A stretch of 64,000 nt of DNA from Candidatus Jettenia caeni (GTDB lineage: Bacteria; Planctomycetota; Brocadiia; Brocadiales; Brocadiaceae), in the NCBI GenBank assembly GCA_000296795.1, contig BAFH01000003.1, positions 1,426,401 to 1,490,400 on the forward strand, given 5' to 3'. The number at the start of each line of letters is the position of its first letter. Within the stretch, counting starts at the first letter, position 1. The notes beneath the pieces were generated by a model. It worked only from the letters and a program-made list of their open reading frames with translations. It did no database searches and had not been told where the DNA came from. This document shows positions 8,985 through 60,271 of the stretch, one piece after another. Made by a program: the position numbers and the translations under genes.

Positions 8985-9194
8985 AGTAAGACAGGGGAAT
9001 GACAAAAAACACATTCCATTCCGGTGTTTCCCGGGAGATTCATGTAATCTCCTCAAAAATCAATCAAAATCTATGGATACTCATGAAAACTTCTCGAATG
9101 TTAGGTATATCCTGGTTTGCAATCTCATGTAATGTATAGGAATTTCAAAGCGAGTCTGATAGGGATAGGGAAGACAATCATCTCCCCTCCCTCC

Positions 9195-9227
9195 GAACCA
9201 TACAGGAGGGTCTCCCGCATACGGCTC
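9195..9227 (-). ncRNA. Orphan group II intron domain V
   Basis: Read on the minus strand, the sequence starts GAGCCGTATGCGGG and ends TGTATGGTTC. The first eight and last eight bases pair (GAGCCGTA with TATGGTTC, with G-U pairs), which is the outer stem of domain V, including the AGC catalytic triad position. The inner stem is poor. No reverse-transcriptase gene is nearby, so this is a decayed end. Confidence 0.55.
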
Positions 9228-9405
9228 TCCAGTCAGTGGGTTCCCCATCGGGATTGATCAATTAGTATCTGAGCTGTGGTTACTGTGAACAAAATGAGAT
9301 ATACCTCAATCTGTTATTTCCAGCAATGTTAAAATATTCCAATTGAATTCGCTGAAAATACCAGGAAGCTCATTCACAGATTAAATATACACCAAACAAA
9401 TTTGT

Positions 9406-11394
9406 ATGGCTAAACAAAAACAGTTAAAAGAGAAAATAAAAAGTATAACTACATTTTCTGAGAAAAATCCACATCCGCTATTGTGTGTTACAGGGGATGG
9501 TACTGTTGTTTACGCTAATCCTTCAGGAAAAGCCCTTTTACAAGACTGGCATTGTGATATTGGTCAATTTGTTCCTGATTATTTACGTCAGCTCGTTATG
9601 AGTACTTTTCAAACAAGAGTAATACAAAGGAATATTGAGACCAAATATGGTAACCAAATATTCTCTTTTACGATTGTACCAGCGACTAATATTTCGTATG
9701 TTAACCTGTACGGTGTTGATATTACTGAACATAAAAGGGCAGAGGAATCTCTTAAATACAGGATCCATTTTGAAATGACTGTGGCTAATATTTCCAGGAG
9801 ATTTACTATCCTTAAGGATTTTGATGATGCTATTACTCAGTCGTTAGCTGACATTGGTCAATTAAGCAAAGCAAGTAGGGCATACTTATTCCTTTTTCGG
9901 GATGATGGCAAAATTATGGATAATACTCATGAATGGTGCTCTGAGGGCGTATCATCTGAGATCCACCATCTCCAGAATCTTCCCACTGCAAGATTTCCCT
10001 GGCTGATGAAAAGCTTTCAGCATATGAATATAATTCAAATACCTGATGTAGGTAAAATGCCCGAAGAGGCTTGCGCAGAAAAGGAGGAGTTTGAACGGGA
10101 AAATATAAAATCGATGTTACTTCTGGCAATTCGTATTGAAAGAGAATTAGCCGGGTTCATCGGTTTTGATAATGTTGTCTCTCCGGATACCTGGCGGGTT
10201 GAGGATATTAATCTGCTGAGCATTACTGCTGAGATTGTTGGAAATGCAATTGCTCGGAAAAGGATAGAAGATTCATTGCGTATGAGTGAGAGTGAGCACC
10301 GATTACTCCTCGAAAATATTCCTATGAGAATATTTTACAAAGATAAAAATTCTGTGTACATAGCTTGTAATCAAAACTTCGCCAGGGATTTATGTATGAA
10401 ACCGGAAGAAATAATAGGAAAGATAGATTATGACCTCTTTCCTAAAGAACTTGCTAATCAATGTAGGGCAAACGATAGAGAGGTTATAGAATCCGGGAAA
10501 AGAATGGATGTAGAAGAGAGATATTTTAAGGATGGACAAGAATTTATTATTCATACTATTAAAGTCCCTATAAAAAATGAAAATGGTACTATTATTGGTA
10601 TATTAGGTTCTTCCATAGATATCACTGAAAAAGTACACCTGGAAAGGGAAGCTGTAAGGTCAAGACATCTTGTCCTCCTGGGTGAATTAGCAGCAGGTGT
10701 AGCTCATGAGATCAATAATCCCATAACGGGTGTTATTAATTGTGCCCAGATATTGTTGAATAAAAGCCGTGAAGGAAGCATGGAAAAAGACCTTGCCGGT
10801 AGAATTATAAAGGAAGGGGATCGTGTAGCTACTATCGTTAGTAAACTCCTTTCCTTTGCCCGACCCGAAGAGAAAAAGAATATAGCTAGTGTACATGAAA
10901 TATTATACGATACCCTTATATTGATGAGGAAACAACTTGAAGAAGATTGTATTCAAATGAAGCTGGATATTCCTAAAGACTTACCGGAGGTATTTGCAAA
11001 TTCCCAAAAAATTCAACAGGTATTTATGAATATTATCAGTAATGCAGGGTATGCTCTGAATCAGAAATATCCGGGAGGACATGAGAATAAAATTCTCGAA
11101 ATCTTAGGTGAGAAAACAGCAATAAACAGACATTCTTATGTAAAGGTTACCTTTTGCGACCATGGCACTGGTATACCTGCCGAGATAAAAGACAAAATCA
11201 TAAATCCATTCTTTACGACAAAACCACACGGCAAAGGAACTGGATTAGGGCTAAACATAAGTTATAAAATTATTACTGATCATCATGGCAAGCTTACTAT
11301 TGATAGTGTTGAGGGCGAATATACCAGGGTTTGCATTACCTTACCAGCAAAAGACTACCACGAGAGTGCTATCATCTCAGAGCACATTGTATAA
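9406..11394 (+). CDS. Soluble PAS-GAF-PAS sensor histidine kinase
   Basis: 662 residues and no membrane segment. Domains in order are an N-terminal PAS-like region (about 15-115), GAF (about 130-285), PAS (about 295-410) ending in SIDITEKV, HisKA with the phospho-accepting His in [12 protein letters not shown] (near 435), and HATPase_c with DHGTGIP and GKGTGLGL. It autophosphorylates in response to a cytoplasmic signal and would pass phosphate to a separate receiver; none is adjacent. From the PAS to the end it is closely related to the kinase at 42262-43527, sharing long blocks such as [14 protein letters not shown] and NCAQIL, so the two are paralogues. It sits between a transposon-rich gap and an IS1182 remnant. 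Confidence 0.87.
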
Positions 11395-42261: not shown

Positions 42262-43527
42262 CTATGTCGGTTTGAATGCTGGCAGAACTATAATAACCTT
42301 GGTAAATACACCTTCAACACTATCAATGGCAAGCCTACCCTCATGGTCCCTGATAATACTGTAACTGATGCTTAATCCTAAGCCCGTTCCTTTACTCCGG
42401 GGCTTTGTGGTATAAAACGGTTCTACTACTCTATCTCGTATCCTGGCAGGTATACCCGTGCCATGATCATAGAAGGTAATCCTTACCGCCGGACGGTTGT
42501 CTATCGTTGTTTCTTCCCCGATAATCTCAAGGATTTTATTCTCATGCACCTCTGGATATTTCTGGTTTAAGGCATATCGCGCATTACTGATAGCATTCAG
42601 AAAGACTTGCTGTATCTGCTGAGGGTGCGCAATAATTTGGGGCAATTTTGGAGAAACGTCTAACTTTATCGTAATACCCTCTTTTCGCAATTGCGCCTTT
42701 ATCAGGACAAACGTATTCGCCACTATCTCGCGGATGCTAACGATGCTCTTCTTCTCCTTTGAATCGCCAAATCTTGCAAAAGAAAGAAGACTGCTGGTTA
42801 TGTTCGCTATACGGTTAGCCTCTTTGATAATCCGGCCGGCAATATCCCTTTCCTTACTTCCTTCGCTACTTTTATTAAATAGTATCTGGGCACAGTTAAT
42901 AACACCGGTTATGGGGTTATTGATCTCGTGGGCTACACCCGCAGCCAGTTCACCTAATGATGCCAGATGTCTGGACCGTTCAGCTTCTCTTTGCAAGGTT
43001 ATCTTTTCCGTGATGTCCAGAAATGCGCCTAAGATGCCAAGAACATTACCCTTTTCATCTTTTATCGGGGTTCTCACCATCCTGACAATCAATTCCTGTC
43101 CATCTACGATATATTTCTCTTCTCTGTCATCTGTCTGCCCTGATTCTATAACCCGCTTATCCTCAGTTCTATATTTCTCGGCAAGTTCTTTGGGGAAAAA
43201 ATCATAATCGGTCTTTCCGGTAATCTCGTCTGGCCTGATATGGAGATCTCTGGCTAAATTCTCGTTACAAGACATGTATACGAAATTTTTATCCTTAGAA
43301 AATATTCTCTGAGGAAGACTCTCAAAGAGGAGCCGATATTTACTTTCGCTTGCACGAAGCGTCTTTTTAGCACGTTTACGCCTGATAATGTTACGGACAA
43401 TACTCCAAAAGCCAACAACAGAGGGAATAAACTGTTTGTATAACCATTCTGCACAAAACCAGTTCTTTGTATGGAAAGCAAAAATAGGGATTGTTACAAA
43501 GAATTTCGAGACGTGAGATAATAACAT
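42262..43527 (-). CDS. PAS sensor histidine kinase under riboswitch control
   Basis: 421 residues. A short hydrophobic N-terminus (FFVTIPIFAFHT and IPSVVGFWSIVRNIIRRKR) may touch the membrane. PAS domain about 60-175 (LFESLPQRIFSKDKNFVYM), then HisKA with the phospho-His in [16 protein letters not shown] (about 205), then HATPase_c with NARYALNQ, DHGTGIP and KGTGLGLSISYS. It is a close paralogue of the PAS-to-end part of the kinase at 9406-11394. The start ATG is fixed by AAGGGG 7 nt upstream. That site is paired within a stem directly joined to a c-di-GMP-I aptamer, so translation should respond to c-di-GMP. No receiver gene is adjacent. Confidence 0.87.
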   Translation of the reverse strand: MLLSHVSKFFVTIPIFAFHTKNWFCAEWLYKQFIPSVVGFWSIVRNIIRRKRAKKTLRASESKYRLLFESLPQRIFSKDKNFVYMSCNENLARDLHIRPDEITGKTDYDFFPKELAEKYRTEDKRVIESGQTDDREEKYIVDGQELIVRMVRTPIKDEKGNVLGILGAFLDITEKITLQREAERSRHLASLGELAAGVAHEINNPITGVINCAQILFNKSSEGSKERDIAGRIIKEANRIANITSSLLSFARFGDSKEKKSIVSIREIVANTFVLIKAQLRKEGITIKLDVSPKLPQIIAHPQQIQQVFLNAISNARYALNQKYPEVHENKILEIIGEETTIDNRPAVRITFYDHGTGIPARIRDRVVEPFYTTKPRSKGTGLGLSISYSIIRDHEGRLAIDSVEGVFTKVIIVLPAFKPT

Positions 43528-43585
43528 GCCAGCACCCCTTTATAAAATTTGGCCGTAACAAACACAGCGGCCTATGGAGTGCTGT
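43528..43585 (-). promoter_or_regulatory. Expression platform sequestering the kinase ribosome site
   Basis: On the minus strand CAGCACTCC, just after the aptamer, can pair with GGGGTGCTG next to the ATG, hiding the AAGGGG ribosome site. A GGCCG/CGGCC hairpin fills the loop. There is no U-tract, so control is likely at translation. Confidence 0.62.
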
Positions 43586-43681
43586 ATTCGCCCGGCAACC
43601 CTGCTACCATATTCTTAATGAAGATTTAGGCCAGTGGCTTTGCGTCCCATCCTTTCGAATGGTTTGCCTTTATCAGGTTTC
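43586..43681 (-). promoter_or_regulatory. c-di-GMP-I (GEMM-I) riboswitch aptamer
   Basis: Read on the minus strand: GATAAAGGCAAACCATTCGA, then AAGGATGGGACGCAAAGCC, then ACTGGCCTAAATC and finally GGTAGCAGGGTTGCCGGGCG. All conserved GEMM-I parts are present: GGCAAACC, a short P1b hairpin with GAAA loop, GGGACGCAAAGCC, GGCCTAA pairing with the GGTAGC side, and the closing GTTGCC. The ligand-contacting G (second G of GGCAAA) is kept, favouring c-di-GMP over cGAMP. Confidence 0.92.
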
Positions 43682-44075
43682 AAAAATTAACTTTATAGAT
43701 ACAAACGTTACGTTTAGCATTTTACATACCAATAAACGATATAGCAACTACAAATCGTTAATAGTGCTCAATATTTATCATATTTTTCATCTTAACATAC
43801 GTATTGTATGAAATAGGTTCAAAAAATTTTACATGACAAAAATGTATCTTGTAGTACACAAATGTTCCTTGATACAGAGTATTCAGAGATATATCCATTG
43901 TTTTTTCTTTCTCAATTTTATATTATTTGCATAGAGCATTGCCCGATCTCAGATCTGCTTATCATAAGCAGAGAGAGAAAACTATTGTGCTCACAGACAG
44001 CTCATAGTAAAATTATCATGAAAGATTCATTTTTCACATTATCTTTAGTATTATCTATAATAAAAGGCTTTTAAA
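43682..44075. other. Divergent regulatory gap with operator-like palindrome
   Basis: No gene. Upstream DNA of two divergent genes. On the plus strand TTCACA (44033-44038), a 17-nt spacer and TATAAT (44056-44061) form a good promoter whose transcript would begin only about 8 nt before the radical SAM start at 44076. TCTGCTTATCATAAGCAGA at 43954-43972 is a perfect 9+1+9 palindrome that could be an operator. Confidence 0.5.
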
Positions 44076-59911: not shown

Positions 59912-60064
59912 TCTTCCGATAAAGGCAAACTCTGAGTAATCAGGGGGCGCAAAGGAAAGGGTCTTGTAACCGTGGACAGTGTTCGTGAACAGTGTCAGTA
60001 TAAGTAAAAGACACTTACACCCATAACTGGAACGATGAAAATAAGATAGCCTTACTGCCGAAGA
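59912..60064 (+). promoter_or_regulatory. c-di-GMP-I (GEMM-I) riboswitch aptamer with enlarged P2 arm
   Basis: TCTTC (59912) pairs with GAAGA (60060) as the outer stem. GATAAAGGCAAAC, then a P1b hairpin TCTGA-GTAA-TCAGG with a GNRA loop, then GGGCGCAAAG and GGGTCTT follow. The P2 3' strand AAGATAGCC and the closing CTTACTGCCG complete the aptamer. The P2 arm carries about 77 nt of extra hairpins (for example TAAGT/ACTTA). The ligand-contact G of GGCAAA (59925) is kept. Confidence 0.85.
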
Positions 60065-60099
60065 TATTTCTATAAATATCTTTGCAGTAAGGCTTTTTT
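60049..60099 (+). terminator. Intrinsic terminator overlapping the riboswitch
   Basis: GCCTTACTGC (60049-60058) pairs with GCAGTAAGGC (60084-60093), continued by GAAGATATTT/AAATATCTTT and then six T. The left arm is also the 3' part of the aptamer (P2/P1 strands). Ligand binding would therefore prevent the terminator, an ON switch. Confidence 0.85.
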
Positions 60100-60271
60100 G
60101 TTTTATGGCCAGCAGGAAGAGATTTCTCATAATAACTACGTATTAATTTTAAAGTATTTATTATAACAAAATTATCACAGGATGTAGATAGAAAGTTAAT
60201 GAAAAACAAACCAGTTTGCCTTTATTAACGACCAGGGTATTGTCATCTGATAAATTAAGGGGGGGATTTAA

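What the first reader, a model, noticed from the sequence alone, without database searches (positions are those of the whole stretch)
43528..43681. c-di-GMP riboswitch hiding the ribosome-binding site of a histidine kinase
The minus-strand aptamer is close to the canonical c-di-GMP-I sequence. Its 3' edge runs straight into CAGCACTCC, which can pair with GGGGTGCTG over the AAGGGG site of the kinase gene. This links a second messenger directly to the amount of a two-component sensor, an unusual wiring that also places two c-di-GMP switches of different mechanism (translation and transcription) within 17 kb.
Basis: partly seen in the sequence, partly recalled or inferred. Interest (0 to 1): 0.8.

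Follow-up and report, generated by a model that had tools for sequence, protein, structure and literature searches.

The report
c-di-GMP translational switch on chimeric kinase
An anammox bacterium carries an RNA switch for the messenger c-di-GMP in front of a shortened sensor-kinase gene, and comparison with relatives indicates that the messenger turns kinase production down, with the switch having been copied onto the kinase from genes for secreted surface proteins.

Summary
Window 43678-43591 (-) is a c-di-GMP-I aptamer (RF01051, 84.1 bits, gathering 35), with the guanine at position 20 that marks c-di-GMP rather than cGAMP binders. The CAGCACTCC/GGGGTGCTG pairing over the kinase ribosome-binding site is present. 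On this one sequence it is not beyond chance (a helix as long in 12% of shuffles), but it persists in 13 related leaders of three Jettenia genomes, with two compensated pairs. I add the missing half: a second hairpin, 43596-43581 with 43568-43552, uses the aptamer's own GCCGGG (ligand contact plus P1 strand) and the same CAGC, so it cannot coexist with the ligand-bound aptamer or with the sequestered site. Folding with the aptamer held closed removes this hairpin and hides the site in the kinase leaders. The predicted switch is translational OFF, like Vibrio Vc2. The kinase gene is a chimera: about 390 bp (promoter region, riboswitch, first ~19 codons) resembling leaders of secreted beta-helix genes, joined inside a PAS domain of a 1200-aa kinase paralogue; the PAS-kinase part is under purifying selection. 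A c-di-GMP riboswitch before a histidine kinase has a precedent (C. difficile cmrRST). Nothing was tested at the bench.

The parts
43591..43678 (-). c-di-GMP-I (GEMM-I) aptamer: P1 5' strand 43677-43674 (CCUG), J1/2 43673-43668 ending in G20-equivalent 43668, P2 with GAAA loop, P3, J1/3 43596-43595 (C92-equivalent 43595), P1 3' strand 43594-43591 (CGGG)
   Evidence: cmscan RF01051 84.1 bits, E 4e-15; junction register from the cGAMP riboswitch description in PMC6274999 and checked on 14 leaders
43576..43584 (-). anti-SD strand B, CAGCACTCC
   Evidence: 9 contiguous pairs with 43538-43530; retained and partly compensated in related leaders
43530..43538 (-). strand D, GGGGTGCTG, overlapping the Shine-Dalgarno tract AAGGGG (43540-43535), 2 nt upstream of the ATG
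   Evidence: SD unpaired probability 0.41 free to 0.18 with the aptamer held closed
43552..43596 (-). competing anti-sequester hairpin: GCCGGGCGAAUACAGC (43596-43581) with GCUGUGUUUGUUACGGC (43568-43552); shares GCCGGG with the aptamer and CAGC with the anti-SD strand
   Evidence: MFE of the isolated platform when UGCC is included, lost when it is cut away; two compensated pairs in A2
43551..43572 (-). inner hairpin GGCCG/CGGCC (43572-43568 with 43555-43551) of the sequestered (OFF) state
   Evidence: part of the MFE in the OFF state
42262..43527 (-). 421-aa orphan histidine kinase: signal-like N-terminus, PAS_4, HisKA, HATPase_c; no Cache, HAMP or receiver domain
   Evidence: ORF; Pfam; dN/dS 0.10-0.18 for the PAS-kinase part between Jettenia orthologues
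43471..43864 (-). captured cassette: upstream region, riboswitch, RBS and first ~19 codons, 76% identical to the a3 leader of a secreted-protein/EPS locus (L086)
   Evidence: blastn 7.5e-79 over 424 columns; shared N-termini MLL(S/F)H..K
43422..43423 (-). junction of a 153-nt in-frame deletion relative to the orthologues of the two other Jettenia genomes; it removed most of the remnant half PAS domain
   Evidence: alignment of orthologues
59914..60098 (+). second c-di-GMP-I riboswitch, terminator type; the 5' arm of the terminator is the aptamer's 3' end, so c-di-GMP = ON is predicted
   Evidence: terminator -26.9 kcal/mol, z -8.7

Best explanation
A class-I c-di-GMP riboswitch that represses translation of an orphan, sensor-less histidine kinase. 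Without ligand, the aptamer's last nucleotides (GCCGGG) pair on into GCCGGGCGAAUACAGC/GCUGUGUUUGUUACGGC; this ties up the anti-SD strand and leaves the SD open (ON). With c-di-GMP, P1 (CCUG/CGGG) and the binding pocket hold GCCGGG, the hairpin is excluded, CAGCACUCC pairs with GGGGUGCUG and the SD is covered (OFF). The leader reached the kinase as a cassette (promoter region, riboswitch, RBS, start of a signal peptide) like those of secreted beta-helix genes in an exopolysaccharide locus, fused in frame into a PAS domain of a multi-PAS kinase. Shown: aptamer, both helices, their conservation, chimera, selection. Inferred: binding, direction, size of effect, cell role.
For: Aptamer; G at position 20, A47 and C92 equivalents present. 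Sequester helix kept in 14 leaders (7-9 of 9 pairs); in A2 two pairs changed on both sides, against 0-1 when slid. Competing hairpin: 95.5% of cells paired, two pairs with double changes, slid registers 26-46% and none. Folding: SD unpaired 0.41 to 0.18 (window), 0.91 to 0.19 and 0.86 to 0.20 (orthologues); sequester helix to 1.00 in all three, competing hairpin to 0; platform shuffles reach the orthologues' change in 0.5% and 1.5%. Cutting away the 5' UG (C) flips the isolated platform from one fold to the other. Same layout, anti-SD close behind the aptamer, in deltaproteobacterial loci picked only by an aptamer motif. Vc2 is a known translational OFF switch worked by P1 (PMC9262584). GGDEF (10) and EAL (3) domains in the genome.
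Against: For the window sequence itself the predicted change is modest and shuffles reach it in about 11%. Covariation rests on few, closely related sequences (18/500 and 29/500 shuffles). Some paralogous leaders (a3, x) are predicted to stay sequestered and G016 a1/a2 do not sequester. Energy models ignore tertiary contacts, cotranscriptional kinetics and ribosomes. No binding or expression data.
Confidence: 0.72

Rival explanations
1. Translational ON switch: the bound aptamer still allows the shortened CGAAUACAGC/GCUGUGUUUG hairpin, which frees the SD, and the unbound RNA is the sequestered one.
For: A shorter version of the hairpin without GCC is still formed in some leaders when the aptamer is closed but P1 is not imposed (a2-type leaders); secreted matrix genes, from which the leader derives, are usually raised by c-di-GMP (general knowledge).
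Against: The long hairpin competes with, rather than needs, the ligand-bound aptamer; once P1 is imposed, the sequester helix rises to 1.00 in all kinase leaders and to 0.85-0.91 in four of six a1/a2 leaders.
Confidence: 0.1
2. The aptamer binds c-di-GMP, but the platform no longer switches: it came along as a passenger with the captured promoter and start codon.
For: Other copies of this leader feed only 39-56 codon ORFs (a3, x); SD change for the window sequence is within the reach of shuffles.
Against: In the kinase orthologues the aptamer is nearly invariant, both helices persist and the predicted change is largest (0.91 to 0.19), while the remnant half PAS drifted at dN/dS 1.25.
Confidence: 0.13
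3. Control is on transcription (intrinsic or Rho termination in the leader) rather than on translation.
For: Most other c-di-GMP-I switches of this genome end in terminators; one weak terminator-like site at 43568-43552.
Against: That site has 3 G-C pairs and only CAAATTTTAT behind it, with 0.5 such sites expected by chance; no clear T-run follows the leader hairpins, unlike the terminator switches of the same genome.
Confidence: 0.05

Closest known systems
Vibrio cholerae Vc2 c-di-GMP-I riboswitch (translational OFF, tfoX-like gene)
   Same: Same aptamer class; P1 formation is the switching element and ligand binding lowers translation (PMC9262584, PMC6366702).
   Different: Target is a histidine kinase in an anammox planctomycete; direction here is predicted only.
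Clostridioides difficile cmrRST with riboswitch Cdi-2-2
   Same: A c-di-GMP riboswitch in front of genes that include a histidine kinase (CmrS) (PMC6837544).
   Different: Class II aptamer, raises transcription, operon with two response regulators and an invertible element; here class I, translational, lone kinase, predicted lowered.
Deltaproteobacterial GEMM-I leaders before fibronectin-type III-like secreted proteins
   Same: Share the exact 21-nt aptamer 3' motif and an anti-SD strand, in six of seven 6-9 nt behind the motif; GEMM-regulated FN3 genes are described in Geobacter (PMC2996986).
   Different: They drive secreted proteins, not a kinase.
Second switch of the window (59914-60098) and most other RF01051 copies of this genome
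   Same: Same aptamer class, same genome.
   Different: Terminator platform in which the aptamer 3' end is the terminator arm, hence predicted ON.

Membership tests
c-di-GMP-I riboswitch (RF01051) | Covariance-model score above the gathering threshold over the full model | tested here: met
   84.1 bits against 35, positions 1-87/87
c-di-GMP-I riboswitch (RF01051) | Ligand-contact nucleotides G20, A47, C92 (Vc2 numbering) | tested here: met
   43668 G, GACGCAAAG core, 43595 C in the alignment and junction check; roles from published structures
c-di-GMP-I riboswitch (RF01051) | GAAA loop of P2 with receptor in P3 (CCUAA...UAUGG) | tested here: met
   UUCGAAAGGA and CCUAAAUC...AUAUGG in the sequence
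c-di-GMP-I riboswitch (RF01051) | Binds c-di-GMP | not testable with these tools
   needs in-line probing or ITC
GEMM-Ib cGAMP riboswitch | A at the position equivalent to G20 (A14 in the Geobacter structure) | tested here: not met
   G in all 14 leaders; position identified through PMC6274999
Translational OFF c-di-GMP-I switch (Vc2 type) | P1 strand shared with a competing helix whose loss covers the RBS | tested here: met
   in silico; covariation
Translational OFF c-di-GMP-I switch (Vc2 type) | Lower protein output with c-di-GMP | not testable with these tools
   needs a reporter
cmrRST-type arrangement | Class II aptamer, operon with response regulators | tested here: not met
   class I aptamer; next genes aroA and ribD-like
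Orthodox sensor histidine kinase | HisKA and HATPase_c domains intact | tested here: met
   dN/dS 0.10-0.18
Orthodox sensor histidine kinase | Extracytoplasmic sensor domain | tested here: not met
   no Cache or HAMP, unlike the 1200-aa paralogue

The most novel reading that the evidence does not exclude
An RNA aptamer has replaced the sensor domain of a histidine kinase. A riboswitch cassette with the start of a secretion signal was duplicated from a matrix gene and fused into a kinase paralogue, deleting Cache, HAMP and most PAS domains, so that the input of this two-component protein is now its own translation rate set by c-di-GMP.
Probability: 0.4. Interest if true: 0.6.

Novelty: new member of a known kind. 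Interest (0 to 1): 0.42.

Why it matters
It would show how a second-messenger input can be moved to a new gene in one step, as a promoter-riboswitch-start-codon cassette, and it would couple c-di-GMP to phosphorelay signalling in anammox bacteria, whose growth in granules and biofilms depends on matrix control. It also puts two c-di-GMP switches of opposite predicted sign 16 kb apart, so rising c-di-GMP would raise one gene and lower the other. The RNA mechanism itself is not new.

Tried and rejected
cGAMP specificity: rejected, G at position 20 in all leaders. Transcription terminator in the kinase leader: only one weak site. Pairing judged from the window alone: not significant, so comparative evidence was used instead. 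P3 strand CACUGGCCUA pairing with UAGGCCGCUGUG as an anti-aptamer: noticed by eye, not needed once the GCCGGG hairpin was found, and not tested. Constraining only P2/P3 without P1 gave weaker switching; with P1 it is clear. MAFFT misplaces the a1/a2 leaders (A1), so pair counts use the 8-sequence alignment A2 and the register table. Homologous platforms outside Jettenia in the family: the DNA search matched only aptamer parts, mostly query bases 6-46. Plasmid collection: no match. Literature: no paper found on c-di-GMP riboswitches in Jettenia; the library is incomplete.

Full report
What is there. On the minus strand, 43678-43591 matches Rfam c-di-GMP-I from first to last position with 84.1 bits, more than twice the gathering score. 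The nucleotide that separates c-di-GMP from cGAMP binders (G20; A14 in the cGAMP riboswitch, PMC6274999) is G here and in every related leader. Using the junction register of that paper, P1 is CCUG (43677-43674) with CGGG (43594-43591), and the C92 equivalent is 43595. The kinase ORF (42262-43527) begins 63 bases after the aptamer ends: PAS_4, HisKA, HATPase_c. The proposed CAGCACTCC/GGGGTGCTG helix is real, 9 contiguous pairs with one G-U.

Is the pairing more than chance? In this sequence alone, no: 356 of 3000 shuffles of the stretch between aptamer and SD give a helix as long, and the platform does not fold better than shuffles. Relatives decide. In all of them strand B can pair with the SD strand over 7-9 of 9 positions. 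At pair 8 the window has C-G, its orthologues U-G, the a3 leaders U-A with a changed SD (GGAGG); at pair 3 G-C becomes A-U in G017_x. On alignment A2 95.8% of cells pair against 38-57% in slid registers, with two doubly changed pairs (18 of 500 shuffles as high). The sequences are few and related, so this is good but not overwhelming support.

The switching part. The leader contains a second hairpin, GCCGGGCGAAUACAGC (43596-43581) with GCUGUGUUUGUUACGGC (43568-43552). It takes the C92 equivalent and the P1 strand of the aptamer and the CAGC of the anti-SD strand, so it excludes both the ligand-bound aptamer and the covered RBS. It is conserved with its own double changes (95.5% of cells, slid registers 26-46%); in G016_x a G-U position of the window is C-G and the helix is continuous (by eye). 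The isolated platform folds into this hairpin when UGCC is present and into the sequestered form when the fragment starts at CCGGG or CGGG. With P1, P2 and P3 imposed, the hairpin falls to zero and the sequester helix rises to 1.00 in the window and both orthologues; mean SD unpaired probability goes 0.41 to 0.18, 0.91 to 0.19 and 0.86 to 0.20. Shuffled platforms reach the change of the orthologues in 0.5% and 1.5% of cases, that of the window in 11%. The cost of closing the aptamer is 3.9, 9.4 and 6.1 kcal/mol. This predicts translational OFF, the same logic as Vc2, described as a translational OFF switch in which P1 decides (PMC9262584). Some paralogous leaders do not fit the simple picture: a3 and x stay sequestered and two G016 copies do not sequester.

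A wider family. Nine stretches of the genome collection hold the exact aptamer motif ATGGTAGCAGGGTTGCCGGGC: two from Jettenia, seven labelled Desulfobacteraceae, Geobacteraceae or other deltaproteobacterial groups. In six of the seven a strand complementary to the RBS region starts 6-9 nt behind the motif, and in the seventh 27 nt behind; helices of 8-18 pairs, e.g. AGTACCTCCTTG/CAAGGAGGTATT. Most of the genes behind them look like fibronectin-III-type secreted proteins (by eye), as reported for Geobacter GEMM genes (PMC2996986). The layout is thus a known type. In the window's own genome most other copies carry terminators instead, including the one at 59914-60062, whose terminator arm is the aptamer's own 3' end (-26.9 kcal/mol, z -8.7), which implies c-di-GMP = ON.

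How the kinase got it. The leader paralogues a1 and a2 stand before secreted proteins with right-handed beta-helix domains in a locus with glycosyltransferase-like genes. All copies share not only the leader but the start of the protein, MLL(S/F)(H/D)..K. Homology between the kinase leader and a3 runs over window 43864-43471, i.e. upstream region, riboswitch and about 19 codons (76% identity). From about codon 26 the orthologous kinases match the C-terminal part of a 1200-aa paralogue with Cache, HAMP and several PAS domains; the junction falls inside a PAS domain. In the orthologues the remnant half PAS evolves without detectable constraint (dN/dS 1.25, 83 codons) while the PAS-kinase part is constrained (0.13); in the window 51 codons of that remnant are deleted in frame. 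The kinase part is under purifying selection against both orthologues (0.10, 0.18). None of the other kinase paralogues listed in this genome starts close behind an RF01051 match (positions compared by eye).

What is shown and what is not. Shown by sequence: aptamer, both competing helices, conservation, chimera, selection. Inferred: ligand binding, sign, magnitude, partner response regulator, physiological role. The genome encodes GGDEF and EAL proteins, so the ligand is probably made. Novelty: the RNA is a new member of a known kind; a c-di-GMP riboswitch before kinase-encoding genes is known from cmrRST (PMC6837544), though class II, transcriptional and ON. The fusion origin is the most interesting part. 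From memory, a 4-contig, 4.09-Mb assembly fits Ca. Jettenia caeni KSU-1; this was not tested.

Noticed in passing
L005 / L089 2519-4228 (G000:C4:469774 region): Another c-di-GMP-I riboswitch of the same genome, apparently terminator type, stands before a protein with response-regulator receiver, partial GGDEF and methyltransferase domains; the aptamer is conserved in the two other Jettenia genomes.
   Followed up: partly
G003-G013 (genus g3 of the family): Genomes of one sister genus carry 20-56 RF01051 matches each, very high numbers for one riboswitch class.
   Followed up: no
window 59914-60098: Terminator-type c-di-GMP-I switch, predicted ON, opposite in sign to the kinase switch; drives a secreted-looking protein starting near 60270.
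   Followed up: partly
L086 10230-10400 (G000 a3) and L090/L092 (x leaders): Complete copies of the leader feed only 39-56 codon reading frames with a signal-like N-terminus; remnants of lost genes or small proteins.
   Followed up: partly
window about 10231-11349 (+): Another paralogue of the kinase module (62% identity, 669-aa open frame) lies in the same window without a nearby riboswitch.
   Followed up: no
window 9159-9229 (-): Rfam group II intron match just above the gathering score (43.3 against 40).
   Followed up: no
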